A stretch of DNA of 64,000 bases from contig JASANC010001169.1 in the NCBI GenBank assembly GCA_030248135.1, positions 248,001-312,000 of the forward strand, given 5' to 3'. Positions 8,201 through 39,240 of this stretch are shown here, piece after piece. The translations under genes and the position numbers were made by a program. Each line of letters starts with the position of its first letter. Position 1 is the stretch's first letter. The DNA is from Theristus sp. LFF4_11 (lineage: Eukaryota; Nematoda; Chromadorea; Monhysterida; Xyalidae). The notes under the pieces are model-generated. The model searched no databases. It was not told the DNA's origin and saw only the letters and a program-made list of their open reading frames with translations.

Positions 8201-11200
8201 TGCCGATTAAAACCCAGTAAAACCCCCCGATTTTCCCGGAACGCCTACCTCAAACACCCACGATCCGGTGTCCGGTCGATAGTCGCGGAATGCGGCGCCC
8301 ATTTCAGCCGAAGCCCGTTCCAGACGATCACGGTACCCGATCGATTTCAAACGTTGTACGTCCTGCACAGTTTCCGCCGTCAATCTCAATCTCAATAAGC
8401 ACAAACTCACATCAAAAAGCCGCCAAGCACTCATCCGCTTGCCTTGATCGGCAGTCGCGTGCTCTTGTCGTTCGGCCAGACGCGCTCCAGCGTGATCTCG
8501 GCCGTGCGATTCAGCTGTTCGCCAACCGGCGGCTTCTTCGATTCGTCCGGATACACGGTGACTTCCTTGTGTCGAAACACCACGAGCTCGTCAATGTTCA
8601 AATTCGTGATGTCCAATTCTCCTGGAAATCAAGCAGAAATGATTTCTATTACGATATTGCACTTGGCGGCTGCTCGAGGGCGCGTAAAACATACTTCACC
8701 GCAGCCCAACGAAAACTCCGACACATTTTGGTTTATATTGGTTATCTATTTTTTACCGCCGAGTTGCGTGAAAAACGCTAAAAAACCAATTGCTCAAAGC
8801 ACGAAACACACCAGGCCAAAAGACCGATCCATAGGCGGCGCGTCCGACCGTGAATCCATTGGCAAGCACACATCGGCCGTGGTCGTCGGTCAAGTCAGCC
8901 AGTTCCTCCATCGACGGCACCGTGTAATAGTCGCTGCGTGTGAGACGTATGCCAGCGGGGTGCGTGCTTTGCGCGCTGTCCAGTGGCAATTCAACCGACT
9001 GTGGCGAACTGTGCTCAGTGGTGCCGTTGAGCAGAATTGAGTTCGATTGTGACACGTCCGTCTGACATTGTTGATCGGACAGACGAGTGGAGCGCCGATG
9101 CGAGTGGTGATCGTGGTGATGGTGATGCTGCTTGGAGGACACTGCTGCGTCCTCGCTTGATGGCGACTGTAGTTTCAGTAAAAATCCTTTTTCAGGTTCT
9201 TCACATTTACAACATCAAATTCAAAAAAAACAAGCTTCAAGTTCAAATTTTGGCCCCAAACAGACAATTGCAAAACAATAGGCCCGTCGCCACTATAGGG
9301 CTGCTGCTGCAGAATTTGCAGCACTGTAAGCCAGTTGAATAATTACGTGTATAAATAATGACTCGTCTACGACGACGGCAGTTCTTGACGGCTTGAACAA
9401 CAGTGCAGCGGAACAGCAATCAGCAAGCAGCACATAAAGCAAGCATAACACAGCAGCAGCCCCGTAGTGACGTGTCGGACGCATCTACGTCAGCATGAAT
9501 GTGCCTTGACACTGACCGTCGTCTTCGCGGCAGCCGCATTCACCGGCAACACCGGCGTCTCGTGCGCGAGCGAGTCAGACATGACCGTAGTCGTCAGCAG
9601 CGACTCGTCGAGGTTCAGCCTGCCAACGACACGTGGCACGTTCGTGGCGTCACCAGTGGCCGTCACCGTGGTCAGTGTGTTGTCAGCTGTCGCCAGTATT
9701 GGTGCTCGTGGATGAGGCGTACGCGGCGAGTCGCCAGGCTGGCCATTCATTGCTGATGGACTGCTCAGTGACTGAAACAGACAGAGCAGTTATTATTGAT
9801 TACCAAATAATAACGCAATCCGGTTGAATTGGTAACGCCCAGAAATTTAGAAACCTGATGTTGATCACCACCAACCAAGGCACCAGTGTCAACCAAACTA
9901 CCAAGTAACACAGAAAATGGCAGCGAACATCATTGTGGCTGTTGTACGGCTTCTTGCGTATGACGAGTGCCTTGACATTGCGCTGCGGTATGAATCCTTG
10001 CTTCAGCAGTCGCGTGTCGTCGAACAACTCGTCAAATTGTTGACCGGCCGCTGACTGCAACACAACAAGCAAAACAGTATTGTGATTTTTTTCAATCGAA
10101 TTCTCTAAAATTCTTGAACAGTTTTTTTTCACAGCAGAAACGAACCCGCGTGTTACGTTGCAACGCAGCGGCCAATGGCGATGAGGCGGGCCAGGCGAGA
10201 TTCAATCGTGGCGGTTGCCTCGGGCGGATTGACACGGCGCTGCTGCCGAGGGAGCGATTCAACAGAGAACTGGGCGAACCACCGAACGAATGATGCTGAC
10301 TAGGCGACGCGTTCGTGAGCGATTTGTTTAGAAACTGAAAGAAAACGCATCCAAGATCCAAAAATCACAACAACAACAACAACAACAAAATCCAAGATTG
10401 AAACAAAGTTTGCGCGAAAACAAGCACCAATTGAGCATGTCACGAATACCAGCTCCAAAAAGCATTTCTGTAACCAGAATGTCTTCCTTTTTAGACAGCA
10501 GGTCAGCAGCTGGCACAAAGAAGCAACTTTTTTCCGACCTGTCTTTGAGCAATCGGATCAGTGGGTCTCGGTCTCGTTGTTGACTCAGCGCTGCCAGTGG
10601 TTGCCGAGTCGTGTAGCAACTTCGACAGCGGATTGTCTCCATACGGATTCATTGCAATGCCAGTCAATGTCGCTTGCAGCATCGCCTGTTGTGCGGCTGC
10701 TTGACTCGCATCGCTGCAAAATGAATGCAATACAAATGTGCACGGATTTGGTCACTGAAAGCTGTGCAACGAGAATCCTTGAATGAAAACCGACGTTCCC
10801 AACGTGATCGTCTGCGACTGCAACGGTTGCGCGGTGGAAAACGTCAGCGATGTGCCTGCAAATGGCCGTTCTGCCGATTAAAATTCAGTTCACTTCCAAT
10901 TTTCTGGCGCAAAGATGGAAAAACCGAAACCACAGAAACGCCACAAAAGAAAGCACAAACCAGCGGCGGGTTGAGCGACTCCAAACGGCGCAAACGCCTG
11001 CGTCTGCGGGCGACTGGCAGCGGCGGCGCCGAACAGGCCAGCGCCGGGCTGCGCCAACGTCGACGCCGCCGATGTGGCCCCGAAGAAGCCGGTCGTCGCT
11101 GGCTGCTGTGTCGCGCCAAACAGGCTGCCGGGCTTCTGAGCAGTCGACGGCTGACCGAACAAGCTCAAGCCGCCCGCCGGCTGTTGCGGTTGGCCGAGTT

Positions 11201-13828
11201 GACCGAAGGCTGCAAAAAGGGGGAAAACCCGTCGTACAAAAACAAACATGAAATCGCACAAGTTCGCAACAAGATCAAGTATAAGAGTGACACAACTGAA
11301 CCAAGTTGAAGGTGGCCTAATGCAAACAAAACTGCCCAAAACGAAGCGCACAGCTCACCAGGCGCGGTGGTGGTGGTGCCGAACGATGGAAACGCCGGTG
11401 CGGCGGTTGATTTCGGCGCGAAGAGGCCGCCGGCGGCGGTGCTTGTGCTCGGTGCACCGAACGCCGGCAGTGCCGTGCTCGTGTGCGTGCCGAACAACGA
11501 GGTGCCCGCGGTTGTGGTGGTCGCTGCGAACAGTGGACGCTGAGCAGCGCTCGTCGACGCGCCGAACAGACCGCCGGGCTGCGTCTGAAACGAAACACAA
11601 GCACGATTACCATAGTCGAACTCTAAATTACAGGGAATCAGCTGATTGGTTGGTGGTCACGTGATGCTTGCTTTCTGTGCAGAGAACGACAGACGACGCT
11701 CCACCGCAATGCCTGCACAGAACGCATGTAGCACATGACCACCAAGCAATCAGCTGATTCCCCATAATTTAGAGTTCGACCGTACACCGTATTAAAAAGT
11801 CGACAGGTGACTCTGTAGAACGTTGCATACAAGTGCCGTGATGGTGGCTTATTGCTGTGCTTCTGTTCGATTTAGTCGGTGTTTTTTGTCATCCGTTGCA
11901 CCGGTGAGCATGAATTGTTCACAACTCTCTCATCTGCGTTTCAGGCCTCTAAATGATGCAGCCGAAAGCCTCCACACGCGGCTGCGAGTGACCCACAAGC
12001 GCCCAACGTTTGTGCCCACCCACACCCACCGTGGTCAGTTGTTGACCGAACGCACTGAACGCTGTCGGCTGCTGTGGCGCTGCGCCGAACGCGGTGCCGC
12101 CGAATGCGCCGCCGAAACCAGTCTGAAACAATGATCACAAATTGCATTGCGTAGTCGATTGTGCACTTTTGCGTAAAATGTAATGTTGTTATCGAAACAT
12201 TGGTATTAGCTGACCGTTGTTTGCGGTTGGCCGAACGGCTGCGTCGTTCCGAACAGACCGCCGGCTGATGTGGTGGCCGTGGCCTGTTGGCCAAACAGAC
12301 CGCCCGTTGCTGCCGGCGCGGTCGTGGTCGTGCCTGTAACGAAACGAGGCCACTTCATATAGAGAGAGAGACACTCTTTGTCGTCAACGGAAGTTTTAAT
12401 AAAAGTAGCATCGTTTCTTTCGGTTTGCGCGAATCGAATGCGTTTGCAGACGTTGGTAGAAAATTAGTTTCACACTTTCAAAAATGCCAAATGACTCTGT
12501 CGTGTCTCAGACAATAGAGTTGACGTCCAATGTCCAAATACATTGGATTTTAGAAGTACAATGTATTTATGCGTGCGTTGAGAACCAGAAAAACTGCTCC
12601 AACCAACCGAACAAGCTTTTTGTCTGACCAAACGGAGCGCCAGTGGCCGTGGAGACGGCCGTGCCGAACAAGCCGCCCGTGGCCGGGGCAGCCGCCGTCA
12701 CGCCCAAGCCACCTTTACGATTTGCGATGTAATCCTCGCAACGAAGCTCCTAAAAGACCAACGCTGATTTGTTTGCAACAAGATTCCTGTCGTCACCTGC
12801 AAATCTGCAACAAAAGCGCGCTAGCCTCGATGCTTTTCAGTTTGTACACGTCCATCGCAGTGATGCACTGGTGTTTCGTCTGCGCCGACGTTGATATGCC
12901 GTTTTTCATCATCGTGTCCGTCGCGATCGGCGGCTCGAACTTCTGCGTTGTGCCGCTGATGGTGGCGCCTGCAAGAAATCAGCGAACTTTGCGTGCGTAC
13001 AGTTTTCCGCGGCTCGACTGCAGAAACATCACATCAAATCAACCAGGCTGTTTTGACATCAAAAACATGCCGTGCAATTGCAGTTCAGTTTGCATGTTGC
13101 GCTGGCTGATAGAACGAGAACATACATGTTTCAATACAAAACTCAGACAATATGAAATGCAATACAATACAACAAAAAAGCTACACCAACCGACGACAGT
13201 GCTGCCAAACAGAGCGCCAGTGGGCGCAGTGCTCTGCGTTGCACCAAAGAAGCCTGCCGCCGTTGTGCTGGGCGCCGCTTGCGCACCGGTCGCACCGAAA
13301 AAGCCGCCAGCGCCGGGCTGTTGCACTCCGGCTTGTGTCGTTTGGCCGAATAACGCCGGCTTGTTCTGCTGACCAAAGAGCGACGTCGTCTGCGGCTGCG
13401 CTGTGCTCGTGAATGCCGATGGTGTCGCCGTGCCTGTGCAGGGAGAGAGAGAGCAGCACTCGGAAACTGGTGAAAGTGACACCGAATAGCGATTGGATAG
13501 GCAAAAGACATGCTGACAAAAACACTTACTCGTTCCGAAAAACGACGTCTTCTGCCCGAATAGCGGTTGCGTTTGCTGCTGTTGAGGCTGCGAAAACAGC
13601 GATTTGTTCTGCGCCCCGAACAATGAAGTGGTTCCAGTGGAGCTCGTTGCTGCAAGCGCAAGAAAAACAATGCAAATTATTTCAAGAGATTGGTTTTAGT
13701 ACATGTCAGACGGGCAAGCATTTATAACTTCTGCCTCCATTTTGACTTTCTCCAGCGTTTTTGTCAAGAAAAAACCAACCTCCAAATCCGGTGGAGCCAA
13801 ATGTTGAGGTTGGTTGTTGGCCGAACAT
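2296..13828 (-). CDS. NUP98: Nuclear pore protein precursor NUP98-NUP96, 34 exons, 1798 aa
   Basis: Exons (minus): 13828-13780, 13649-13530, 13433-13191, 12968-12826, 12749-12608, 12333-12215, 12122-12030, 11584-11359, 11209-10961, 10855-10804, 10713-10539, 10334-10146, 10054-9929, 9771-9517, 9166-8812, 8621-8443, 8362-8249, 8052-7885, 7049-6929, 6833-6597, 6262-6021, 5863-5741, 5648-5519, 5424-5347, 5267-5170, 5085-4980, 4773-4584, 4382-4143, 3951-3787, 3493-3358, 3217-3094, 3017-2895, 2817-2715, 2479-2296; 5397 nt in all. FG/GLFG repeats fill residues 1-135 and 200-480. The Rae1-binding GLEBS motif (GTTQKF, then TKHQCITAM, then CEDYIANRKG) is near 139-198. The autoproteolytic domain has SDYYTVPSMEELA, KPPVGEQLNRTAE and the HF/SKYGL site (cut after Phe947). 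Nup96 helical blocks follow (HFSWHLW, FVLLHI). Human length is about 1817. Two introns look GC-AG (after exons 4 and 16). The ends of exons 10 and 13 are the least certain. Confidence 0.96.
7073..7724. mobile_element. hAT-type non-autonomous element in a NUP98-96 intron
   Basis: A 652-bp element whose ends are TAGGGTTGG and CCAACCTTA. It is flanked by a perfect 8-bp duplication TGCATGAT (7065-7072 and 7725-7732). The arms are rich in AAAACCG/CGGTTTT and fold on each other. The 8-bp duplication and terminal sequence are those of the hAT superfamily. It sits in the intron 7050-7884, directly after the exon that encodes the self-cleavage site, and has no transposase frame. Confidence 0.85.
11613..11784. 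mobile_element. Palindromic MITE, TACAGTCGAAC family, copy 2
   Basis: About 172 bp in the NUP98-96 intron 11585-12029. The arms are TAGTCGAACTCTAAATTA on the left and TAATTTAGAGTTCGACCGTA on the right, with the family inner arm AATCAGCTGATTGGTTGGTG. The loop of some 60 bp is not shared with copy 1. The left end has drifted (ATAGTC for ACAGTC), so the TA duplication is only partly preserved. Confidence 0.8.
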
Positions 13829-17373: not shown

Positions 17374-19252
17374 TCACGCTGTTTCTCCGACAACGCCAGT
17401 TTGCGCAACAATTCCGCGTTTCTTGCGCCTTTTCTGCCTCGTTTTCTCGAGTTTGCGTTTCAATTTCTGCGCGTCCGATAAGCCGGCGAGTTTCTCCGTG
17501 TCGAACACATCCTCGAATGGATCGTCCTGCAAATAAAAAAACGCAATAATGAGTGAACAACGCCTTATTTCGGAGCAAAAGCCAACGAGAACAACCACGA
17601 CCGTCGGCTGCTGTTGCGTTGCAGCCGTCCGTTTTTGTCCGGCCGCCTTTGCCTCCAGTTTGCGTGCATATTTCGCCGAGGCAGCCAGTTTCACGTTGCG
17701 ACGCAGCACGTTCGGACTGACGTATGCCGGGTTTTCGTAGAGCACCGCGCCGCCGAAGCTGCCGTCAAAGATCTTCACAACCTCGAGAGTCATACGAGGA
17801 CCTGAAAGTGCTCGAGTGCGAGGGATGGCCGAGTGAACATGGCGACTTTTCGCAAGGCGCAAGGAGCGCGCGAAATTTAAATGAAAGAAAATAGACGTTC
17901 AGAAATCTAATTGAGTGTCAATGATGTGTTTTTTAAACTAATTGACTTTTCGTGCTATTCTGTTCATGCTTTCTTTCTTGCACACATGATTGGGAATTAT
18001 ATTGGCATTGTTGAAAAAGACAACTCCTAGTTTGCGGCTGATTCGGGCCTTGATGGAGAATTATAACGACTGCCTTTCTTTATTCAACTGCAGCTCCCAG
18101 CTGACCGTCTGCCTTGTCAGCAAACATCAACCACAATCAATTAGCAACAATGAACAACCAATTTCCTCGAGTTGATGTTCGCTGACGATCTGGTAGTTGC
18201 GAAACCAGATTTTGCCGTCTTCCGTGATCGCAAACGTGAACACGTGGTCGAAAAACGGCTGACTGCGCGGGTGATGGCGGGGTGTGGCGAAAATCTAAAA
18301 TCAAAATTTAAAAAAGATCCGGGGGAAAAACAACCTGCTTGCGTGTAATGTGGTGATGGTTCCAGTTCCAGTCAATAAACAGAACACGAAATGAAATCAG
18401 CGCATTTCATCAACCTGAGTCAGGAGTTCTTTTATCAGACAATATTGTGGTTGCGAACTGAACGCGTCGTCAAACGACAAGATCGGTCGTGATCCCTTGA
18501 GACAATTGCCGCTGAGCCTGAGTTCGCCCATGGTGTGTACGTTGTGCACTTGGAACTTCACCGAAGGGCCGACGCCAACATTGGCCATCCACAAGTAGAG
18601 GTCTTTGCGCTTACGATTCTCGAAATAGACACATTTCGAGCAGTTCTTCATCTCGGCAATTTCGTTGATCAACGCCAAGTTGTCCTTTTTGTCCATCTTT
18701 GGCTCGTTCTTTGCGTGCGGCATCATTTCGCGAAAGTCCTGCGATCATTCGAAACTCCACACACAAATCAGCGAGTTGTTTCCTTGATGATGTTTGCCCA
18801 AATACCCTAAATGTCCCGACCCTATCTTCGCGACTCGAATCCATTTGCCAATTTTGAATCACCGCGTCATGCATGAAACTGGTTACCTATCCATCCATGC
18901 GCATATTAAGTCTCCGGACCGGAACCAAGACACAGGATAATAAATTGCTGGAAAAAAGCAAAAAGCTAACCTGCATCAGATGACGGTCTTTGAACGAGCA
19001 ACCGCGCGAACAAAACACGAGCACTCGAGTTCGATTCAGCCAGTCTTTCTTGAGAATTTTCTCATTGACGTTGGCATCGGTGTCACCATGAAAATCACCG
19101 TCGTTCAATGTTCTGCTGTTTTGTTTGCCCATTGTTGACGTACCAGTGGCGTCAGCATCGGCAATAATGGCGTCTGCGGACGCATCCGTCGTCATTTCCT
19201 CATCCGATTCCGATGAAGTAAAAGCAGCCTCGCTTGATCTTAACTTTTTCAT
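17374..19252 (-). CDS. BRIX1: Ribosome biogenesis protein BRX1 (Brix domain), 364 aa
   Basis: BRX1 acts in the nucleolus in early assembly of the 60S subunit. Exons (minus): 19252-18971, 18738-18415, 18294-18159, 17801-17602, 17526-17374; 1095 nt in phase. The start is the ATG of MKKLRSSEAAF. An acidic, Ser/Asp-rich tail is followed at about residue 80 by the Brix domain: RVLVFCSRG, then RHLMQDFREMMPHAKNEPK, NEIAEMKNCSKC, LYLWMANVGVGPSVKF, GNCLKGSRPILSFD, HHPRSQPFFDHVF and GKIWFRNYQIV. It ends with IFDGSFGGAVLYENPAYVSPN and a basic, helical C-terminus. Length matches the human protein (353 aa). The open frame extends upstream of this ATG, but a CAG acceptor 28 nt before it suggests the 5' end is spliced. 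A tRNA-like SINE occupies the intron 17802-18158. Confidence 0.95.
17823..18087 (+). repeat. tRNA-related SINE, copy 1, in BRX1 intron
   Basis: About 265 bp, alignable along its length with 23486-23748 in the GST intron. The start GATGGCCGAGTGAACATGGC resembles the A-box region of Ser/Leu tRNAs, and GACGTTCAGAAATC further on is a weak B-box candidate. Copies share AGGAGCGCGCGAAATTT, ACACATGATTGGGAAT and GATGGAGAAT. It is inserted opposite to BRX1 transcription. Confidence 0.6.
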
Positions 19253-25471: not shown

Positions 25472-26244
25472 TCATTTTGGTCTCGGTCCAAACTGTTTAT
25501 TCCATTCGTCGGCCTTCGGCAACTGCGACTGATGCGCGTGATGGTGGTAGAGCGTTGATGGGTGCGCCGACACATCGGGCGGATACATCAGGTGATGCGA
25601 CTGCTGATGTGCGTGCTGTTGCTGATGCTGCTGATGATGCGCCGGATGTGTCGCGTGATGATGCGGCTGATGGTGTGCCTGATAGAGCACATCGGCACGA
25701 AAGCTGCTGCTGCCGCCGGCGGCGCTCGTCGATGCGGCGCCATACGCGGCCGCGCCGTGCTGGTCGTCTTTCGCGCGTTTCTGGTGTGTCGGCGACTCGT
25801 AGGAGGCCGAGGCGGACAGACGCTGATGATGAGCTGCTGACGAGGCTGATGTGCCCGGTGGATGAGTTGCTGATGATGCTGATGTACCCGGTTGATCGTC
25901 GGCGTGCGCTTGTTGCTGCTGTCGATGTTGCTGTAGGACGGCCGCTGAGACGCCAGCGGACGGTTTCAACTGGACGCACTGCACGCCGCCGCCTCCGGAG
26001 CCGCCGGACTCGCACGAGGCGCTGTCCGCTTCCGCCGGGTACGGCCGCTCCTTTTTCTCCTTCATTCGTCGATTCTGGAACCAGATCTTCACCTGCCGCT
26101 CGGACAGTCCGGTCGCCTGCGCGAGCTCCGTTCGCTCGGCCCGCTGCAGGAACTTGCTCTTGTGCGTGTAGAAGTCCTCCATGGTCTTGATCTGGTTGCG
26201 GTCGTAGATCTGCCGTTTGTGCTGTTGCTTCTTGAAGTGCGGAT
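25472..26244 (-). CDS. Homeobox exon A: divergent posterior-class Hox, His/Gln-rich tail
   Basis: Exon from an ATAG acceptor at 26245-26248 to TGA at 25472; 2 nt plus 256 codons and stop, so the upstream exon must end in phase 1. The homeodomain starts with KRQIYDRNQIKTMEDFY and ends [19 protein letters not shown]; the recognition helix is intact (Q50, N51, R53). Between helix 1 and helix 2 it has one residue more than the standard 60. The remaining 190 residues are low complexity, with PGTSASSA twice and His/Gln runs, ending EWNKQFGPRPK. Recognition-helix context ([16 protein letters not shown]) and position at the cluster edge fit a posterior (Abd-B/nob-1/php-3-like) gene; similarity in helix 1 is low. 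No 5' coding exon is visible between here and homeobox exon B. See the shared-exon finding. Confidence 0.88.
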
Positions 26245-28783
26245 CTATAAAGAATATGGAAAGAAATTCAGGTGATAGATTGAAGGCATGCAGAGTGAAA
26301 ACGTCGAGAACGTATCGAAATGAATGGGTGTGTTTTGAAATTTGAAAAATCGTGTTATTCTTAGATTGCCAACAGAGGACAAAAGAATCACTATTGCAAG
26401 CATGCGGTTGGACGTGCAGACATGCAGACATGGAAACAGAATTTTTTGAAGAAAAAACAAATTTTTCTTTTTTTGCCACAATTTTTCAATCGTTTTATTT
26501 TGTTTAAAAATTATTGTTCATTTTTCTAATGCAACTGGATTAAACTTGCATTTAGGTCTACGGTATCGGTGTTTCACAAAAAGTCATTTCAAGAGTTACA
26601 CAAAATCATAAACACCAATTGGACAACCGCAATAACACCAATTACTTCAGAAGAAAAAACAGTAACCACATCTGGAAAACGGGTATAAATAAAACGTAAC
26701 AACAATGATTATAAGTTCGTTTCGTTTCGCTTCCAACTTTATTCAAGCTTTAAAACATTGCGAAAGTTACATTCAACTTTTGTACATGCACATCACTGCT
26801 TACTACTGAAGCTCAACGTTTGACTGATTTTGAAGAACAGCGCAATGTTTTTACTGAAATAAATGCGCAAGCGCACAACCCCCACACAAATGCAAAGTAT
26901 AACTGATTTTTGATGAGAACAACTAACGCTATACAGTATCACGTCATTACCAGATGCAATGTGCAATGCAGATTCACATCACACAACAACAACAACAAAA
27001 ATAAAAAAAAATGTGCAGAACATCAAGCTTTTTAATTGTAGTCCTTTCCATTTTTATTTTTAACAAAACCACCAAAGTTTTCCAAAACCAAACCCACCAG
27101 CTCAATGTTGAACACTTGTGTTTATGCTACTTACTACAGTTTATATTGCAGTACAACAGCATTTGTGTAACTAACGGGTACTGCGTGCGCTGCAAAAGCT
27201 GCATCAACCGCCATTTCAAAATCATCCCCGTTGCTGCCCCACCCAATTATTATGGATAACGACCCCCGAGATTCGGCGGCATCTGTAGCAACAAATTGCC
27301 ATCTGCGCGTTCATTTTCGTCTTACGGTACAATGGTACATGGAAAAGAGCGGGGTGGAACATGAATAATGCAGCAGCAAATTGTGCCCGGGCTTGTGCTG
27401 CAGCTTTTCTAGCCACATCAGTACAAAAAAAGAGCTTGCAAAAAATCAATACCGTCTTCTCTGACGGACGCCGTTCAAAATATTTCAAACAAGCAAAACA
27501 AATTCAGCAATTATACAATTGTAGCTGCAGTTTTAAAGAACGCAAATTTCCATCCACGCGTAAAATGGACAATAAAAACAAGTGGTGCATAATAGAGTAT
27601 GAATTGGACAAGTATAGATATACTTCGAAACATACAAATAAGAACAAAAAGACCAGAGACACAGATCAAAGACGGACACGAAAACGAAAAACGAAAAAAA
27701 CGTTTGGAACAGCACGGGCGGACAAAACAGGAGGACTAGCGCAGCAGGGCTTGAAGGATAAAAAGGAGCAGAGTTCTCTTGTATGGACACAAATTTGTAA
27801 AACGCAACAGTTTGCATGTACTATGAAGAATCGGTCGTATAATGTATTTTATGTTTGAAACAAAGTCAAATGGAGACTAGAAAGTACAGAACTGAACTGA
27901 ACTAAACTGAACTGAAGCGACCGCGAAACAAAACGAAATAAATAAGCTGTGAAACCCGCGACGCCACCTACAATAATGCATGTTCGTGCTGTTTGGTGGA
28001 CAGCGATGTGCACATATGACATGATCGTGTCTGAAATGCACATAAAAATAAAATATATCAAAGGAAACGGAAATAAGCAAAATAAAACGAAGAAAACTTT
28101 GGAAACTGGTATGAAACCAATAGACTTAGATTCAGTTGGAGCACAGATCAAGAACAGTAAGATTCAATTTGGTAAACTAGCAGGGAATTCACACATTTCA
28201 CACACAATGAAATCGGGAATTTCAAGTTTTTACTGAACTGTTCAACGACCATCCAGTGCAGCACTGCATGACGCCTGACCACAGAAAGCATGTGCAGTGC
28301 AAGTAAAGCTCAGTCATTCGTTTTCAACAATTGGTAACAGCCCCTGAAAAACGGGTGATAACTGTCTGGAATTGCGATGTCAACATGTAGAAACTTCAAA
28401 TCCACAACACATAAACAACGATGTGCGAAACTTTAAAAAGTGCAAAACTGTGCAAAACACGATCTGAAAAAATCGCCTGTCTCGCAGTCTATGGCAGGTC
28501 GCACCATCAGATCATGCTATGTATTAGTAGATTACTTGAATTAGCATAATCCGTCTACCCAGCGATTTTTTCCTCCGTACCACCATGATCAACACTAATC
28601 ATGACGTATAAAATAGCGTCAGTTTCAGAACAAACATTTCAAAAAAAAAACGAAATCAGCTTCCTCATATGAAATCATTGTGAGCAGCGACCAACGAAAG
28701 CATTTTATATTTACTCCGGCCATTCTGCAAACTGCAACGCGACTGCGTGAAAGCAGCAGGTGATTCGAGCGAGTGCAGTTGCC
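26245..28783. other. Non-coding DNA between homeobox exons A and B
   Basis: AT-rich. It would be an intron if exon A is spliced from the distant upstream exons, or the 5' region of an independent gene A. I looked on the minus strand for a Met-bearing exon ending in phase 1 or for a hexapeptide and found none. A plus-strand frame at 27361-27858 is Lys-rich and not protein-like. Confidence 0.5.
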
Positions 28784-29148
28784 TCAGCGGTGGAACGGCG
28801 GCATGAAATGCGCCACGGACGGAGGCTGCCCGGGCAACTGGTGCGGCGGCTGATGCGCCGGCAGCGGCTTCTCGTCCGGCTCCATTTTTGCGTAGACGGC
28901 GCCGTTGGCGTGCTGCTGCTGCTGCTGTTGCTGGTGCTGCTGTTTCATTTGCTCCTCCTGCGCCTTCTTCTCCTTCTTGTGCTTCATTCGTCGATTCTGG
29001 AACCAGATCTTGATCTGCCTCTCCGTCAGAAACAGCTGCTTCGACAGCTCCACGCGTCTCCGCCGCGTCAAGTACTTACTGTAGTGGAACTCCTTCTCCA
29101 GCTCCAGCGTCTGATAGCGCGTATACGTCTGGCGGCCGCGTTTCTTTT
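28784..29148 (-). CDS. Homeobox exon B: central-class (Antp/mab-5-like) Hox
   Basis: Exon from a TTTCTAG acceptor at 29149-29155 to TGA at 28784; 2 nt plus 120 codons and stop, so the upstream exon must end in phase 1. The homeodomain opens [20 protein letters not shown] as in Antennapedia, continues [18 protein letters not shown], and closes [28 protein letters not shown] and RRMKHKK are shared with nematode MAB-5 rather than insect Antp (WKK). A glutamine run and a short proline-rich tail (MPPFHR) follow. Central Hox genes normally carry a YPWM hexapeptide in the exon before; none is visible in the 2.3 kb upstream on this strand, and the nearest candidate is the 36712-36794 exon with NWMGRP. 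The identity as a central-class Hox exon is firm; which 5' exon it uses is not. Confidence 0.93.
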
Positions 29149-31448
29149 CTAGAAATAAAGAGGCAGTTCAGAATGTTCACGTTGGTTTTTTTTTTCGCGA
29201 AGGATCGATCGAAATCAAACGACCGTAATCAAATATTCCCATGACGAGGTCTGTCCGAGTTACCGTGTCGTCTCGCGCTAGCAAAAACAATCGCAATAAT
29301 AAAAGTCATAATTTGATTGGCAAGCGCAATAATGGCGGCGCTCTTTTGCACAAAAGTTGCCCTTCATTTGTGTTCAATCACCCCCATGATGGTGGCAATA
29401 TTTCGGAATATGATGATGCTTTTTTCAAAAATTATGATCACTGTTTGTGCTCATTATTACCGTGATCCCTTAATCTGTGTCTGTCTTTGGTTGAAGGCTG
29501 TAAAAGATGTCTCATGGCCGAGAAATCCGGTGTGTGGATACTTGGATGCTTCGTTCCTAACCCAACATACAATGTACATATTATTTGCAATGTACATTTG
29601 CGTTCGATCGAAAGTCCACGAGGTTCTTCTTGTTTTGCTACCGTAATCCAAAACTGAAACGTGTCGGCCTATGCGCAGATGGTTTCAGCGTTTTTTTTTT
29701 GCTCAACATGCGCTGACTGAGAATTTGGGTGTTTTGTAAGTGACTTCATCCGACGCAGCCACTAAACAATAAAACTAAAGTTTGTAAGAAACTCAGCAAA
29801 AATTGTAACACGCGACGTTTAACGTAACGAAAGTGTCGTAAACGTTGCCTTCGGTGCGTATAAACAGTTGACAATCGCGAGCGCAGCGAACGTGTACAAA
29901 CGTACAACAGTTTACAAATCCATGTTTTTTTGCCAACCAAGCGAAAGTCCGCCCACGAAAGGTGAGACTGCGTGTTTCACACAAAAGGGCGCATTGAATT
30001 GGTGCTCGCTCGCCACAAGGCCGCATGGGTCGACGGCTGCGTTTGAAATTTTGTTCAACGCGCTTGTTGATATGCGAATTTGTTGTGCGATGATGATTAC
30101 ATTTCTGCGTACATACACACAATGCATATATTCGTGGCGTTTCACTTGCGTGTTATCGGCACGCACAAATGTGAGAAAATCTGTCGCCGTGGCATGGCGC
30201 GCATTTTTTTTTGTGGTGTTTCGAACAAATTCAGAATCGTGTCGCGACAAGAGGATGTGCGCTAGTGTGCATACAGCACGTTCATTTCCTTTACCGTAGT
30301 CCTCCTGATTGGTTTTTCACAAAAAAAACAGTAATAGATATTTGTTCGAAATTTTAGTGGTTGCTGCGCCGAATTTTGCTAAAAAATCCGCTGAAATTAA
30401 AACAATTTTAATCGAACAAACATTTTCAATGAATCGATTGACACTGCAAACATTTGACACTCGATTTACTCACAGAATGATAAACAAAAAAAACGACACG
30501 CCAGGTAGAAATTTGACATGAAATTTTTAAACAGAAAAATGAAATCGACACTGTGGAACACATGAGGCTGCAAAAAGAGAATGCATTTAGACATAAAATG
30601 ACTTAAAAACATGCGTGGTATATAGCAACTTCAAAAATTAAAGCGTTTTTGTGACGTTGAAAATTTAAAGTTTAAACAAAATAGAACATTTTAAAGCAGT
30701 TTTTAATTTGTTTAAAGTGCGTTTTTGCAAGAGTTGTAGTAATATTGCATCGGTTGAATATACAGTAAGAGTATTTTCAGTGCTGAGATATGACTTGAAC
30801 AGCCATGGCTTTTCAAGTGAAATTTAAAAAAAAAATTAAAACAAGCGCAATGCAAATTGAACAAGCGCAATTGATGCAAATCATCATAGATCATCTTTGA
30901 CACAATGGCATTGCGCAAAAGTTAGTTGAATAAGCAAAAATGTATTGAGAAACAAAATTTTAGGGCAATTCAACAGGAAATATACGGCGGCAAATACATG
31001 CTTATAAATAAACGACTCTATAAAGAAAAACAAAAACCACCAAAAATCCAAATATCAGAAAACGAGGTGATCGCACAATTTCTATCATTCGTTGACCATG
31101 AGCTAAGTTGCGCAGTATTTGAGTTCCCAAAAAAATATACAAGTCACTGAAAAATTGCATTTTACACAATCGGCAACCGTTGTGTGCAGGTGCCAGCATG
31201 TGCACCATACTGCACCACTTACAAAACTTTTGAGTTACTGCACCTTTCAGTTGCATCAATGGTTTCAACACCCTTTTCTTCAGCTTATTGCCGGTTATGA
31301 AAAAAAGTTTACGAAATTACAGAGTGGGTCTGCAGAAATGTCTAAAATGTGCACTTTTCAGTGTGTAAACCAATCGCGGAAAAGAATCGATCGCCAGAAA
31401 AGACCTAAAAAAGCGAACAGAACGCACGCATTCGCCCGTGCCTGGCGT
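29149..31448. other. Non-coding DNA between homeobox exons B and C
   Basis: Contains a GTCGTAAA word at about 29837 and otherwise AT-rich DNA with no recognised exon, hexapeptide coding or repeat family member. If exon B had its own promoter and first exon they should be here. Confidence 0.5.
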
Positions 31449-32110
31449 TCATTTGAACGCTCCATACGGATGCGGGTACATGGCCGAATACGCGGACGAC
31501 ATCAGAGGATGCGGGTAGTAGGCGGCGTACGGGTTGGCAGCGGCCGAGTGCGTCGCGGCCGCTTGCGCCCCGTCGGTGTCGGCCATTTTGCTCGTGCCAT
31601 CAGCGTTCGTTGCCTTATTCGCTTGTGCGTCCTGTTGATGTTGCTGATGTTGCTGATGTTGCTGATTTTGTTGCTGTTGGCTGACGGCGGCCCGGTACTG
31701 CTGATGTTGCTGTTGCATCTGCTCCGGCGAGCCCCACGCGGGCACCGGCTGCACGATCGGCGGGTACCGATGGTGCCCGTGCGGGTAGTGGTGCGCCTGC
31801 TGCTGCTGCTGGTGGTACTGCTGATGGTGCTGCTGTTGCAACTCGAGCACCTCGCCGGCGTCGCCCAGTTGCCCGCCGGAGTGCGACTGCTCGTCGTCGG
31901 TGGTCGAGCCGGCCGCCTCGCTCAGTCGGCGGTCTTCCTTCTTCTTTTTCATGCGTCGATTCTGAAACCAGATCTTCACCTGGCGATCGTTCAGTCCGGT
32001 CGCATTCGACAGCTCCGTGCGTCGCTTCTTCGTCACGTACTGCTGCTGACGGAACTCCGCCTCCAACACCATCGTCTGCATCCGGTGGTACGTCATGCGG
32101 CCTTTCTTCG
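31449..32110 (-). CDS. Homeobox exon C: posterior-class (egl-5/Abd-B-like) Hox
   Basis: Exon from a TTTCCAG acceptor at 32111-32117 to TGA at 31449; 2 nt plus 219 codons and stop, phase 1 upstream. The homeodomain is [19 protein letters not shown], then [17 protein letters not shown], then [20 protein letters not shown], the standard 60 residues with L16, F20, W48 and N51. It lacks Antp-class helix 1 and best fits a posterior gene such as EGL-5/Abd-B, by eye only. The tail has an acidic patch, then Gln/His-rich stretches and ends [19 protein letters not shown]. Joined to the three upstream exons (39240-39120, 37584-37215, 36794-36712) it gives 411 aa, the most economical model because it is the nearest homeobox exon downstream of them. 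Confidence 0.92.
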
Positions 32111-35100
32111 CTGGAAAACACATGCGAGGCGCATCGGAATGCGAATGCACTTGTTCAGACACATGAAGCAGCCGGTGTAAACAGTCGAGAATGGAGGGCA
32201 CTGCTTGAGAAACTGCTAGAAATGGAAGCTGTTCTGCTAAACAAGTGTCCGGTGAAGCTGGTGATCACTGTGAACAGCATCAACTCTGATCTACCAATCC
32301 ACGAGACAGATGGTGTGTGGTGCGCTCACTATTTCGTATAGTTCGTGCTGAACGATAGATCCATGAACGAAAGCGACAGCATAAGAAATGGAAAAGATAG
32401 CATAGTTGTTGTACTGGTTGCTGTTATGGCGGTGCCCACTACGACCGTGTTGTTTTTTGGAATTGTTGCAAATCTTCGGCAACTACTTGGGTGGTGTCCC
32501 CCCTGCATCGTGCAGCACGGACAATACGAAAGTTGAATAAAAGTAAGTGCAACACAAGATCAGTGCTGTCAATCGAAGTTATTATTGTGAACAGCAATTA
32601 AAAATGAACATTTGTTTGAAGTTACTATTACTGAAAGAGTGATGTCTGCAATAAAGGACAGTGAAATCACAACAAGCGTTGCACTACATGCATAGAAAGA
32701 CTCCTCAGCCTCAATTTCATTTTTAGCACATTCCCCGAAGAAATGGATTTTTGACGAAACGAGTGCACGGACTGAACCAGAGCATGGCCACAGCACACAC
32801 GACACACAGCTCGTTGCAAGTTGCAAATCATCCAGCCGATCTGGCAATGCGACCGCTGGCAATTTTATGTTGACCGTTAACTGTTTTATGTGCTCATCGA
32901 TGCACCGCATTTTTTGTATGTTTGTCCCTTTCGAAAGGTCGATTTTCCCAGTGAGATCTAGTGTTGTGCTGCATGAGTTTCCGTAAGTTTTATGTACACT
33001 CGCAATTTACGAGCGTCGTCCATGCGATGCGACAAGTGTTGTGCGAGCTCACCACATTTTGCACCACACAGTCAAACGCAAACGTTTAGCGATAAGTTTA
33101 CATTTCCTGGTATTCCTACTACATAAAAATTACAGCTTACACTTTTTCCACTTTTGCTGAAAAATTCCTGAAACCATTGCGAAATTCGTCCATTCGTATT
33201 TCCAAAAAAGTACCCCCGAACAATCGAGCGAGTAGCGCGCGTCATTATTCAGCACACTTTTCACTCTAATCTCATAACTCTTTTTCGCCATTTTCTTTGT
33301 TCCTGCTGTGGTCATTTACGCGGCGGCGACATCTGTGCGCAGAATGCTCGTCGTTTCCCTTGCACTCGCAAAGTGGTGTGTCTCGATGCGTGTGCGTGCG
33401 TGTGTTTTTGTTTTCTTCTACTGGAGTAAACAGGCCCGGCACAGTGTGTATGTGTATAGGCGTCTTGCGGAATCTTTTAATTCGAATTTGTGCGGGGCGT
33501 AAATATGAGAGCATATAAGAGAGACAGCGAGAGCCCGGGTGGCGCGCGCGCTCTTGTTGTTGTGGCCGGTGCGTGTGTCGGCGGTGACACACCACACACA
33601 CACACGGATCAAAGGGAGCTGCCGCCACGGACACGGACAAGTTTGCTGACAAATGTGCGTCGTTTCAGACATTCTTGCAGCGAACGAGGCCAACGCACGG
33701 CCATTGGTGCGCAAATTTATGACGCTCGCTCCGCCCAGCCGCGTCAACGACTCTGCACACACGCTTTAATCGTTGCCGCGCACTGCACGCACAACAAGCG
33801 CATAAGCGCTGGCTGCTCCACCACGCGCCTCATACACGAACCAGCCGCTTTTGCACCTGCCTCGTTGATTGTGTCCCCCCTCTTTGTTCAAGACGCACCC
33901 CCAACGCCCGTCAACCGAATGCGCCAATTTTCACACAATGCCACATTTCACCACGCCAGTCGCTCTCGCTTCGGCTGATACAGTGTGATCTTTGATAAAC
34001 GAAACTTGTTTTCACTGCGGAAAGAACGCCCACTTCCCAACACGGCTTAGATTACATTACGCATTTCAAAATTTCAAAAAACGCTATGCGTGTGCGTGTT
34101 TATGTGTTGAGCGTGTGAATTCGAAGGCAAGAAAAAACAAGACTGAGTTGAAAATGTAGAAAAAAGATTCAATTTCAGTGCGGCGAACGCATTCTGGATG
34201 TGCATAGTAGCCGTGTGCCGTTATGATTCGTTGTCTTTTGCGCTTGTCGCGCTCTGTGCGTCCGTGGCGGCGTGCCCCTTTGAACTGGTTGCACAACGCA
34301 CGGCTGTAAATTATCAGTAATGTTCATTTTTCTGCTCTGACCACCATCACACGAGCAAATGTGTGTGTCTGCGTGTGTGTACAGTGTGTGCGCACATTCT
34401 TGTGTATAAACCACACCACACACAGTTAGTCACTAATTCAGACTCGTTGAAAATACAAGCAAGCCGGCCAGAGAGAGACTCAAAAGTGATACGATACGAC
34501 CGCAAAAGTCGTTCACGCCCCACCGCAGCACAACTGCGCCCCGTACAACAACAGCACACACGACAGGGCACTATGACGCACACGCAATTGCGGGAAGTCG
34601 CCTCATAGTCACCAACATTGCGAATGAGTCAACAAAACGGTCAGCGGTCTTCAGTTGACCAATTTGTTGACCGCTTTTGTCACTGCTGTTCAATCACGTT
34701 TTTTTTATCACGTGGAATTTTTTTTGTCTGCTGATCACCTGCAAAGTCGCCCCTGCATGTCGGCGAAACAAGTGAACCACACAAACATTGCTCGCACAGC
34801 CAAAAGTTCCCAACGAATTGCTCCAATAAAACCCACCCCACTCTGTCCGCACTGTGGTTGCAGTCACTACGTACTATCAACAAACGAGACTTCAGTTTCC
34901 GTGCCGTGATCTAAACGAGAAATGAAAACTGCCCGGAACCGCAGCAATAAGGAATTTTTGTTGCGCGGCTTACAGTAACCAAAATTTCGGAAAAACGCAA
35001 ACAAGCGGATGGAGAAATGGCGTGTTGTTGTTGTTTGTTGCTGTTTCGAAGTCGTAAATTATGACACAGAGTGCAGCAATTAGCAGTACACACACACATA

Positions 35101-36711
35101 CACAGACATGCAGCGCCGTGAACCAGCTGCTTTACGATCGTTATACAAGCTTGATTACGATCTTGGGGTCCCTGGGCGATCGTTAGCATCTGCCGTGTCC
35201 TGTGTCCTGTGCCAACATTGTGCACATTTGAAAATTGTTTTACCACCTTCGAATTAACACACTGGCGCACATTTCTTGATTAAATCTATGAACTGTGATA
35301 TCGCGCGGCGCGGCGGCTTGCGATCAAACGCAAATCAAGACAAGGTGTGTGTTCTGTTGCATCCGTGAGCGAGCATTAGTGGAGTTTTGTGCGAACTCGT
35401 TGCTAGTGGGTTCGGGGACTTGGTTTGCGTTTAAAAAACAATCTTGATGGTATTCACTGTCCTAGTCTGAAGACAGCGCACTCTGTTGTACACACAGTAA
35501 TGTTGTACAGTCACAAACAAACACACAGGCACACCATGTGTGTATGCGCGTGTGTTCATATGTGAGACTGTGCATCATTACAGGGTTATGAATAGAGTGG
35601 AACTTTAACAGCGGCTGGCATCCCTCAGTAGACGTCATGCTGAAAATAATATTTAAAAAAACCAAACGCCGCCAAAAAACGATGTACCAGCGCAATAAAA
35701 CTGCACGCGTGAAAAAAAAACCACAGAAATTCCAAAACAATAATCGAAAATAAAAACCATCGTTGTGTGACGAGCAATTTGTCTCGCTGATGCGGCTTTT
35801 TCTGACGATTTTTCACGATCAGATGGGTCGTGAGAAGTGACTGGTTGACGAATGGGCTGGTGACCTTGGCCAGATGCACGCCCACTTGCGAGCAAATGTG
35901 ACAATGGATGCATACAAATTGATCGTTCACTCGTCACACAATTGATGCCAGCTGTCTGTCATCATGGCGTTTCACGATTTGATTTTGAAAAAAATGCATA
36001 ATCTTGCGAAAAACGTGTCACACACAAAAAAAAACTATTTTGATTTAGCGTTTGGCAAGAATTGCAAGTTGGGACAAGAAAAAAGCACATCAGGGGGCAA
36101 ACAGGGGAAAAGTTGAACAGTTTGAATACAAATCGGGTTAGATTCGCAGCCATTCTTACAGTATATAAATGGATACTGTACTGTCATTTGGTTACAGCGA
36201 CACAAAACAAAAAGCTGCGCAAACTGGGTCGCTTCAAATTCAGACAAACATAATTTGAACCGTCCAGCCAGCGACTGCGAAGGCTGCTGGGTTACAAACC
36301 AAATTCGATTGTTTCAGCAATTCAAATACACGCAGCATAGCGGAGCAAGCTGAAATGGTTGACTGCTGGTTTTTTTTGGACGAGAGACGACACGGGAACA
36401 TTGACTCGGTTGTTATTCACCTGCACCATTGTTTCCTATTACCCAGCCCCCGCCATAACAACGAACCAAACAAACAACTAGCACGGTTACTGTAAATGAT
36501 TCGGACACGGTATATACGAACGTTTGATATGTACACCGCCACCTCTGGTCGCTTTGTAACGTGACACTGGTAACACCCATGGAATGATTATAGCAAAAAA
36601 TAAACAGCTTGCTTTTGGTTGGGTAAAGCTGAGAATATCGGGATTGAATCAACAAATACACGAAAAAAAGCAGGACAAAAAAACAGAAATGTCGAAATTG
36701 CAACTAACCAC
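32111..36711. other. 4.6-kb intron upstream of homeobox exon C
   Basis: Intron in the exon-C model. It contains GTCGTAAA near 35050, CA/TG-rich stretches at 33.3-34.6 kb and no repeat family member. A short minus-strand frame at 33652 (MSANLSVSVAAAPFD) runs into CA repeats and its phase fits no homeobox exon. No hexapeptide coding seen. Confidence 0.5.
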
Positions 36712-38903
36712 CGGGTCTGCCCATCCAGTTTGTGCCCCACATGTAAGCGCTTGTTGCATACGGATACGACATTGCAGCTAGGTAACCGGGATACCTGAAA
36801 CAAGTGAAAAAAACCAACATTTTTCAATCAGAGACTTCGGCGATCGATCATTGCGAACAGTCAACGATTGAACTGCCGATCATTGCAAACAGTCAACGAT
36901 TGAACTGCCGAACTGAACCGAAACAGGGGCGAATACGTGATCGCTTAAGATGTTGTTAGGACTAAATGAACAGAATTAACGAGACACTCAACAGCTTTGT
37001 ATCAAGTTCGTGCGACGGTGGGATGGAACGTGTGCACTAGCCAGGTGGTTCACCCACTAGCCCCCATGTGATGCACTAGCCCCATGTGGTGCACGCACTA
37101 GCCTCCTTATAGCGAATCTGCCCCAGTCGTGCGCGCCACACTGCGGCAAGCGCCGCCCGTTCCACCGCGCACCCACCGTCGCACCAGTGCAGCTGTGCGT
37201 GCACGCCCACTCACCCGGCGTACTGGCCGGCCGCTGCGTATTGGCCGTGCTGGTAGAGCAGCATCGGGTCGATGCCGGCCGCCGGGTCGGGCAGGCTGGA
37301 CGTGGCTGCGGAGGCGAGCGAGCTGTTCGCGGCGACCGCACTCTGCCCGGCCGTCTGCGTCAGCTGCGCCATCTGTGACAGCGGGTCCGGCATCGTGTAG
37401 CCGGTCGAGACGGCCGAAATCGCCAGCTCCGCCGAGGACTTGGCGAACTGCGCTTGTTGCTGTTGCTGTTGTTGTTGCTGTTGTTGTTGGCCTTGACTGC
37501 TGCTGCTGGCTGTGGACGCCGCTGCGGCGATACTGGCGCCGCCCAACGCACTGAACTGCAACGGGTCATAGCCGCCGAGGAAGCCTGCAATGATACTGCT
37601 ACTTGTTGGTTGGTCTGCTCGTGATGTCTTGCGCTGCTCTGGCACTGTGCCGTGCACTGAAATGAAATTGACTGGCTGACTGCACAGGGGCGCAGTGTGG
37701 CGTAAAGCCACGCAACTAAGGTGGGCCACGATATGAGCTGACGCTGACCGTGTTGGCATCAGAACAGTGATCGTTTGAAGTCAACGAACACTTTGACTGA
37801 ATAAGCACTGTTCGTTGCAAATGGCACAATGGATACATCCATGTAGTGTGGACCAGGTTTTCTGTGGATCGGCTTGTAATGGCAACCAAATAGAGTACGG
37901 TACATTTTACGTCACGGTTTCTGAAATCGGTAGGATGGGTTCCACTAAAATGAAAAACGTTACAAAAGCATGTATGTTTTTCAATGCGCCCTTTTTTCAG
38001 CGCTTTGAAAATTTTCGGCAAGGAAGTTACAAAAAAAGCGACAAGCATCGACCTGTGCAATGTACAAAATGTACGTAGACTGTGTTAGTATGTTGCTTCC
38101 ATTGTGAGCGACCTTGCGTCCATCAGTGTGAACAACGCAACAAACGCCATGCATTCAAATTGAAAACCGAACGAATTTGGGTGTACAGCGAATGAGTGGC
38201 TCAGTCGAGAAACTGCTTGAGCACAAACATTCCAGAGTTCTAGGATCCAGTAAAGCCGTTTCAACTGAGAAGCTGCTTTTGTGCAACCAAGCTTGCGCTG
38301 AACAAATGAGAATTGTAAAGATCGGCTCTTGACTTGAGCGAAAGTAAAATGAGTCCGAAAATGAACATGCGCAACATGGTTTGGTCGTTTTGCATCGGTT
38401 GGCCTTGGGCTTAATGCCTGAGCGTTCTAGTGTCGTCGCGGGCTCCGTGTCTCATAAAAATCGTCCAAATGGCCCGTAATGCCAGAATGGCGATTATTTT
38501 TATAGTCAAGCCCGTGTGTACAGCACTATCACAGCCATATAATCAACCGTGTACCAGTTTTGCTTGAAATGGTTGTGCATAATGTATAGGGAAAAAAGAA
38601 AATAATGAAATAAAAGAAAGCACACATCGAACTGCGCAACGCGCCATATACGCGACGAGATTTATTCCAATTGCACCAATAAAATCAGCAGCAGCCGCAG
38701 TCAACAGCGCCCGAACTGTTTGTGCACCTCTCCACATTGCACTGTGTGTGTGCGTGTCTGTGCGTCACATGTTTTCACACTAATGAGCCATAAAATGACC
38801 GCGCACACGGACTGTTCGTTCACTCTCTCAAGTACCCGCGCACAAACACAAAAACGACGACGGTGACGACGACGACAATGATGATGACGCTGTAGTCGAC
38901 CGC

Positions 38904-38935
<32 letters not shown>

Positions 38936-39240
38936 CGTCGTCGTCGTCATGTGTGTGCGCCATAAACGCAGCCCATAAAACAAGCGTGCAAATACTCGTA
39001 AACGAATTATGACCGGTCCAACGCCGTACAAGAACGTGTGTACGTACAATATTACAAAAGCAGCGTATGAGTGTCGTTGAACGAAAACCAAAGCAAACGC
39101 ATGCAATGCCTCCACTGACCGTTGTTGCCAGCTGCCGAGATGAACGCCGAACTGGCGGCCGGCGTGACGGCGCTCGCCGACGACACGACACTGCCGCTGG
39201 CACTGGCCGACGTCTGCTGCTGCTGCTGCCCGCTGCTCAT
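36712..39240 (-). CDS. 5' coding exons of the minus-strand Hox unit (three exons)
   Basis: Exon 1, 39240-39120, starts MSSGQQQQQTSASASGSVVS and ends at a GTCAGT donor in phase 1. Exon 2, 37584-37215, opens FLGGYDPLQFSALGGAS, has a run of 13 residues that are nearly all Gln, then GIDPMLLYQHGQYAAAGQYA, donor GTGAGT in phase 2. Exon 3, 36794-36712, encodes YPGYLAAMSYPYATSAYMWG, then TNWMGRP, donor GTGGTT in phase 1. The Trp-Met of NWMGRP lies where Hox proteins carry the YPWM hexapeptide that binds Exd/Pbx. Total 574 nt. The end phase fits homeobox exons C, B and A alike. An unspliced reading with ATG at 37759 is also open but ignores a good ATTGCAG acceptor at 37585. Low-complexity Ala/Ser/Gln content is usual for Hox N-termini. 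Confidence 0.82.
36845..36908 (+). repeat. Two 32-bp tandem units in Hox intron
   Basis: CGATCATTGCGAACAGTCAA plus 12 more bases, repeated once with a single difference, 50 bp upstream of the 36794 exon in transcript direction. A second, looser repeat of GTGCACTAGCC-type units lies at about 37031-37105. Confidence 0.8.
38903..38936 (+). repeat. (CAA)n microsatellite in Hox intron 1
   Basis: About 11 CAA units in the first intron of the minus-strand Hox unit. (CAA)n/(GTT)n also occurs at 39536-39564 and (CAA)n at 61218-61239. Confidence 0.9.

What the first reader, a model, noticed from the sequence alone, without database searches (positions are those of the whole stretch)
25472..39240. One set of Hox 5' exons can be spliced in frame to three different homeobox exons
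The three homeobox exons (31449-32110, 28784-29148, 25472-26244) lie in tandem on one strand. Each starts after a good acceptor and needs phase 1. The only visible 5' exons (39240-39120, 37584-37215, 36794-36712) end in phase 1. The joined lengths are 1236, 939 and 1347 nt, all multiples of 3 with no internal stop. No Met-bearing exon or hexapeptide was found upstream of homeobox exons A or B within their own intervals. One promoter could therefore feed three homeodomains of different class (egl-5/Abd-B-like, mab-5/Antp-like, divergent posterior) onto a common N-terminus and NWM motif. Caution: phase 1 before the homeobox is common in Hox genes, so compatibility alone is weak. I recall, without being able to check, that two neighbouring Hox genes of Brugia malayi (ant-1 and egl-5) were reported to be cis-spliced; a three-way case would extend that.
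Basis: partly seen in the sequence, partly recalled or inferred. Interest (0 to 1): 0.9.

Follow-up and report, generated by a model that had tools for sequence, protein, structure and literature searches.

The report
One Hox start, three alternative homeoboxes
In what looks like a nematode genome, three different Hox DNA-binding exons lie in a row behind what looks like one shared gene start, so one promoter may choose among three body-patterning proteins by splicing; a two-way version is already reported from Brugia malayi.

Summary
In detail: coordinates, lengths, frames and acceptors are as stated; only the exon-3 donor probably lies 3 nt further on (36709), frame unchanged. Frame compatibility itself is empty evidence: the other five Hox homeobox exons of this genome also have plausible phase-1 acceptors. 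What carries weight: the order egl-5-type then ant-1-type behind one 5' exon set is what is reported for Brugia malayi, where both homeobox exons are cis-spliced to the same 5' exon (PMC11603191; primary papers not held), and no large 5' exon of their own was found for B or C up to 59.2 kb. So sharing by A and B is probably the known nematode arrangement. The third homeobox, C, appears new: a divergent homeodomain with one extra residue and an intact recognition helix, giving at least eight Hox-type loci against a published nematode maximum of seven. Its use of the shared 5' exons is inferred. The scan is weak for small exons: real exon 1 (121 nt) scores within the non-coding range and exon 3 below zero, so short private exons cannot be excluded. 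No transcript data were available.

The parts
39120..39240 (-). shared coding exon 1 (ATG at 39240), Gln/Ser-rich
   Evidence: translation; coding score 10.3, total 12.4, which lies within the non-coding range: in-frame stop upstream
37215..37584 (-). shared coding exon 2
   Evidence: coding score 69.2; single copy in the genome apart from its CAG tract
36709..36794 (-). shared coding exon 3 with the hexapeptide-like NWM (YMWGTNWMGRPG); donor more likely at 36709 than 36712
   Evidence: coding score -17.6, so support is the open frame, acceptor score 4.6 and the W motif
31449..32110 (-). homeobox exon A, egl-5-type homeodomain, own stop
   Evidence: Pfam PF00046 5.5e-20; 73% homeodomain identity to unnamed metagenome protein P0147
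28784..29148 (-). homeobox exon B, ant-1/Antp-type homeodomain, own stop
   Evidence: Pfam PF00046 5e-21; 80% homeodomain identity to insect Antp
25472..26244 (-). homeobox exon C, divergent Hox-like homeodomain with one extra residue in loop 1, own stop
   Evidence: Pfam PF00046 1e-17; alignment to fushi tarazu 1ftz shows the extra residue; coding score 155 when left out of training
29149..31448 (-). A-B interval: no 5' exon above the non-coding range, no sense-strand AATAAA
26245..28783 (-). B-C interval: no 5' exon above the non-coding range

Best explanation
The locus is one minus-strand transcription unit with one set of coding 5' exons (39240-36709) and three alternative terminal exons, each carrying a complete homeodomain, a stop codon and its own tail: egl-5-type (A), ant-1-type (B) and a divergent third (C). 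Exon 3 is spliced to A, or A is skipped and exon 3 is spliced to B or to C, giving three proteins with the same N-terminus and NWM motif but different DNA-binding domains. Shown here: exon anatomy and frames, no other large coding exon detected on this strand up to 59.2 kb, single copy of exons 2 and 3. Reported elsewhere: the A/B choice in Brugia malayi. Inferred: that A and B are spliced this way in this species, that C is too, and that the choice is regulated by cell or stage.
For: Anatomy and frames. Same-strand order egl-5-type then ant-1-type with one 5' exon set, as described for B. malayi (PMC11603191). A coding scan trained on homeobox exons finds large W-motif 5' exons upstream of lin-39, ceh-13 and mab-5 and finds the shared exon 2, but its best candidates in the A-B and B-C intervals (7.4 and -2.3) lie inside the non-coding range (27 scored, half-overlapping 2.4-kb blocks on both strands, -12.4 to 31.9, or to 14.4 without a candidate at 57204-57375 that may be a mab-5 exon), nothing exceeds 10.6 on the minus strand from 39.3 to 59.2 kb, and nothing exceeds -5.0 in the intron before A (stricter splice thresholds). 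The intervals have GC 0.39 and 0.38 against GC3 of 0.70 to 0.85 in the exons. Without an upstream exon, the first in-frame ATG of B lies in the recognition helix and that of C in helix 1. Distances from exon 3 to A and B (4.6 and 7.6 kb) resemble the homeobox introns of ceh-13, mab-5 and lin-39 (about 5.3 to 7.4 kb). No sense AATAAA from exon 3 to 27,059, 0 against 3.1 expected, P about 0.03, chosen after seeing the data.
Against: No transcript. Phase 1 is universal among this genome's Hox homeobox exons looked at. The scan scores the real exon 1 (121 nt) at 12.4, within the non-coding range, and the real exon 3 (83 nt) at -17.6, so private exons up to about 120 nt would be missed. hox3 and php-3 also lack a detectable 5' exon within about 7.3 to 7.5 kb. 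No W-bearing phase-1 donor was seen in either interval, but at the control rate of 0.33 per kb under one per interval is expected by chance, so this says little. The exon 3 to C distance (10.5 kb) exceeds the other introns measured. Open frame runs 241 nt upstream of C with one ATG, though without coding signal, and 154 nt upstream of A with one ATG.
Confidence: 0.55

Rival explanations
1. Two-way sharing only: A and B share the 5' exons as in Brugia malayi, while C is a separate neighbouring gene with a short or distant 5' exon of its own.
For: The two-way case is reported (PMC11603191); C is highly divergent (end branch 7.95) and farthest away (10.5 kb).
Against: No 5' exon candidate above the non-coding range in the B-C interval; C starts with a good acceptor needing phase 1 and its first in-frame ATG lies inside the homeodomain.
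Confidence: 0.22
2. Three separate genes: B and C each have small 5' exons or promoters that the scan misses, for instance a short Met-bearing exon inside an interval or a trans-spliced leader plus a short exon.
For: Real exons 1 and 3 would not be told from non-coding DNA by the scan; two of five other Hox genes show no detectable 5' exon nearby.
Against: Best candidates within the non-coding range; direct trans-splicing to the homeobox exon of B or C would leave a truncated homeodomain.
Confidence: 0.16
3. A alone is the working gene; B and/or C are relics on the way to loss, seldom or never spliced.
For: ant-1 has been lost repeatedly in nematodes and the shared arrangement was proposed as a possible intermediate of loss (PMC11603191); C is very divergent.
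Against: B and C are open over 121 and 257 codons with strong coding bias when left out of training (98.4 for B, 155 for C), with intact acceptors and intact recognition helices.
Confidence: 0.07

Closest known systems
[quoted passage not shown] PMC11603191 citing Aboobaker and Blaxter 2003)
   Same: egl-5-type homeobox first, Antp-type second, one upstream 5' exon set, none found for the second
   Different: a third homeobox exon follows here; splicing not shown here; primary papers not held, so exon-level comparison was not possible
Human HOXC6-HOXC5-HOXC4 unit (Simeone 1988, as described in passages of PMC1831499 and PMC4584094)
   Same: three Hox genes co-transcribed from one promoter with gene-specific products made by alternative splicing
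   Different: there the shared exon is non-coding (5' UTR); here the shared exons would encode the N-terminus and the W motif of all products
Crustacean Ubx/Antp read-through transcripts (Shiga 2006, cited in PMC1831499)
   Same: neighbouring Hox genes on one transcript
   Different: only the sentence and citation in PMC1831499 were seen; details not checked
HOXA10-HOXA9 and HOXC10-HOXC5 in-frame read-through loci (passage of PMC4584094)
   Same: coding regions of two Hox loci joined in frame
   Different: those genes also have their own starts (recalled, from no call); here none was found for B or C

Membership tests
Brugia-type shared egl-5/ant-1 unit | egl-5 homeobox exon followed by ant-1 homeobox exon on the same strand | tested here: met
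   A then B, minus strand; classes by homeodomain identity, A's class resting on an unnamed reference
Brugia-type shared egl-5/ant-1 unit | a single upstream set of coding 5' exons, no separate ones for ant-1 | tested here: inconclusive
   none detected, but exons up to about 120 nt escape the scan
Brugia-type shared egl-5/ant-1 unit | cis-spliced transcripts joining each homeobox exon to the same 5' exon | not testable with these tools
   no RNA data available
nematode egl-5 | egl-5-type homeodomain | tested here: inconclusive
   73% to P0147, an unnamed metagenome protein that I call egl-5 from a recalled signature; none of the listed hits was named egl-5
HOX9-13 (Abd-B class) for A | homeodomain groups with Abd-B/php-3 | tested here: inconclusive
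   free tree puts A on the Antp side; posterior grouping not rejected, p-AU 0.107
ant-1 / Antp class for B | Antp-type homeodomain | tested here: met
   80% to insect Antp, Antp side of the tree
HOX9-13 / egl-5 duplicate for C | homeodomain groups with egl-5 or Abd-B | tested here: inconclusive
   very long branch; holding C with A, or with A and P0147, gives slightly higher likelihood, p-AU 0.67
human HOXC-type polycistronic cluster | shared exon is non-coding | tested here: not met
   the shared exons are read as coding; strong coding signal in exon 2

The most novel reading that the evidence does not exclude
A single Hox gene with a shared coding N-terminus and three alternative terminal homeobox exons of different class, built by tandem duplication of the homeobox exon alone. 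egl-5 and ant-1 would then not be two ancient Hox genes that came to share a start, but homeobox copies inside one gene, and exon C a third, fast-evolving copy. The tree placing the egl-5-type homeodomain beside the Antp-type B rather than with Abd-B/php-3 fits this but does not prove it. Axial identity would then be chosen partly at the level of splicing.
Probability: 0.25. Interest if true: 0.75.

Novelty: new variant of a known kind. Interest (0 to 1): 0.55.

Why it matters
Hox proteins of different class normally come from separate genes with separate promoters. A unit in which one promoter and one N-terminus serve two or three homeodomains would turn Hox choice into a splicing decision, show how a Hox gene can be merged into a neighbour before being lost (as proposed for nematode ant-1), and offer a natural domain-swap experiment: same N-terminus and W motif, three DNA-binding domains. 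The third homeobox would also raise the Hox count of a nematode to eight.

Tried and rejected
Frame compatibility as evidence was rejected after finding plausible phase-1 acceptors at the five other Hox homeobox exons. An unspliced ATG start for C was judged unlikely: the 240 nt upstream score -49.3 per 100 nt. A recent A-to-C duplication or gene conversion was considered because 86 nt of the A and C homeoboxes are 84% alike (B and C 74%), but A and C share synonymous codons no more often than other Hox pairs do (13 of 20), so this is not supported. Strand skew as a sign of transcription was not diagnostic: the A-B and B-C intervals show sense T excess, but the lin-39, ceh-13 and mab-5 introns do not. 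Inverted repeats that could act as splicing selectors: 16 pairs listed, none followed up, no shuffle control. Species identification failed: no COX1 match, the SSU search did not complete, a paper search with the term 159.4 Mb found nothing. None of the hits listed by the three protein searches was named egl-5 or ant-1, and I saw no comparable shared N-terminus in the 27 sequences asked for (7; 20). Rows dropped: in the homeodomain comparison P0148 and P0154 could not be cut to 60 residues; 37 rows went into the first tree and 36, without C, into the second. A coding-model training set of 106 long ORFs was discarded as contaminated by chance ORFs.
Full report
Observation. The window is C742:248001-312000 of a 159.4-Mb assembly in 3744 contigs. 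The finding's exons are where it says, with the stated lengths, and the three joins give open frames of 1236, 939 and 1347 nt with only a terminal stop. The exon-3 donor is probably 3 nt further on, at 36709; the frame is the same. Coding signal drops sharply upstream of each homeobox acceptor (only 18 nt could be tested at B). The open frames are longer than chance: among 92 acceptor-like sites of non-coding DNA the maximum is 470 nt and the 95th percentile 257; A has 662, C 773, B 365.

What the frame argument is worth. The homeobox exons of lin-39-, ceh-13-, mab-5-, php-3- and hox3-like genes in the same genome each have a plausible acceptor needing phase 1, chosen by eye among several AGs. 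With A, B and C that is 8 of 8.

What does count. I trained a simple three-periodic coding model on eight homeobox exons and scanned for exons with splice sites. It finds the shared exon 2 (coding score 69) and lists exon 1 (10), but scores the 83-nt exon 3 at -17.6. It finds large W-motif exons upstream of mab-5 (59304-59648), lin-39 (569 nt, 7.4 kb away) and ceh-13 (567 nt, about 5.3 kb away), and none for hox3 or php-3 within about 7.3 to 7.5 kb: three of five. In the A-B and B-C intervals the best candidates score 7.4 and -2.3, inside the range of 27 scored, half-overlapping 2.4-kb blocks of non-coding DNA on both strands (-12.4 to 31.9; the top value, 57204-57375 on the plus strand, may be a real mab-5 exon, and the next is 14.4). 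On the minus strand from 39.3 to 59.2 kb nothing exceeds 10.6 (model retrained with the shared exons added), and in the intron before A nothing exceeds -5.0 under stricter splice thresholds. The method is reliable only for exons of several hundred nt: the real exon 1 totals 12.4, inside the non-coding range. No W-bearing phase-1 donor occurs in either interval, but under one each is expected by chance (control 0.33 per kb; the intron before A has seven). Exons 2 and 3 occur once in the genome; the other listed matches fall on the CAG tract (40 of 120 candidates scored; exon 1 not searched). Direct trans-splicing onto B or C would begin translation inside the homeodomain. These results favour a common 5' end but cannot exclude a short private exon.

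Identity of the homeodomains. B is Antp-type: 80% to insect Antp. A is 73% identical to an unnamed metagenome protein that I take to be egl-5 from a recalled signature. In a 36-row tree on 60 columns, A and that protein fall on the Antp side of a well-supported split (99/99), in a weakly supported group with B and the unnamed P0151 (83/58), while this genome's php-3-like gene sits with Abd-B; holding A with the posterior group is not rejected (p-AU 0.107). C is a recognisable homeodomain (Pfam 1e-17) with one extra residue between helices 1 and 2 and an intact recognition helix. It shares RTEL..ATGL of helix 2 with A, but its branch is too long to place; holding it with A gives slightly higher likelihood (p-AU 0.67).

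The organism. Its Hox set (ceh-13, hox3, lin-39, mab-5, ant-1, egl-5 and php-3 types) points to a nematode; this rests on the homeodomains, since species identification failed. By the distribution in PMC11603191 (egl-5 absent from Enoplea and Dorylaimia, hox3 absent from clades IV and V; outline, parts 1 to 3 of 8 of the text and passages seen), it should be a spirurine or an early-branching chromadorean. The SL1 22-mer was not found; since SL1 is, as I recall, nearly invariant in the better-known chromadorean orders, that would fit the latter, but the search had no positive control. With C it has at least eight Hox-type loci among the best 30 of 82 homeodomain matches, the rest not being classified. 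PMC11603191 and PMC5531438 (passages) give seven as the nematode maximum, and PMC11603191 reports no nematode outside Caenorhabditis with more than two HOX9-13 loci.

Comparison with the literature. PMC11603191 states that in B. [quoted passage not shown] The primary papers were not held. In mammals HOXC6, C5 and C4 are co-transcribed and share non-coding 5' exons (PMC1831499, PMC4584094; passages). PMC6956190 has no mention of splicing or Brugia. My searches for a nematode case listed 1 of 1, 0, 15 of 278, 12 of 18 and 0 papers; none of the titles and abstract starts seen describes three homeoboxes on one start, but I read only the papers named here. The two-way arrangement is therefore known; the three-way arrangement with a shared coding N-terminus, and the third homeobox, were not found in print by these searches.

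Verdict. Everything about transcripts is inference.

Noticed in passing
59304-59648 (+), homeobox at C742:315004 (about 3 kb beyond the window end): 5' exon of a divergently transcribed mab-5-like gene with a YGWM motif; a further candidate coding exon at 57204-57375 (+).
   Followed up: partly
own genome (loci L001, L003 to L006, L008, L009, L015): At least eight Hox-type homeobox loci among the best 30 of 82 homeodomain matches: ceh-13, hox3, lin-39, mab-5, ant-1, egl-5, php-3 types and C. Published nematode maximum seven.
   Followed up: partly
32110-31449: The egl-5-type homeodomain groups with Antp-class homeodomains, not with Abd-B/php-3; posterior placement not rejected.
   Followed up: partly
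27059-36708: No AATAAA on the sense strand from exon 3 past A and B (0 against 3.1 expected in the non-exon part, P about 0.03, post hoc), while the window as a whole has an excess of AATAAA, 117 against 49.5.
   Followed up: partly
36845-36908: A 32-nt unit tandemly duplicated at 97% identity just upstream of exon 3.
   Followed up: no
4142-4549, 8756-9214, 11168-11656, 13042-13695 and 18400-18744 (all -): Of 10 ORFs scanned, five matched Pfam at 0.001: a Nup96 match just over its cut-off, Nup98-96 autopeptidase and two FG-repeat matches below their cut-offs (together suggesting a Nup98-96-like gene), and a clear Brix domain.
   Followed up: no
whole genome: No COX1 match and no SL1 22-mer within 2 mismatches; the assembly may lack the mitochondrial genome and SL arrays, or the species may use other leaders.
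   Followed up: no
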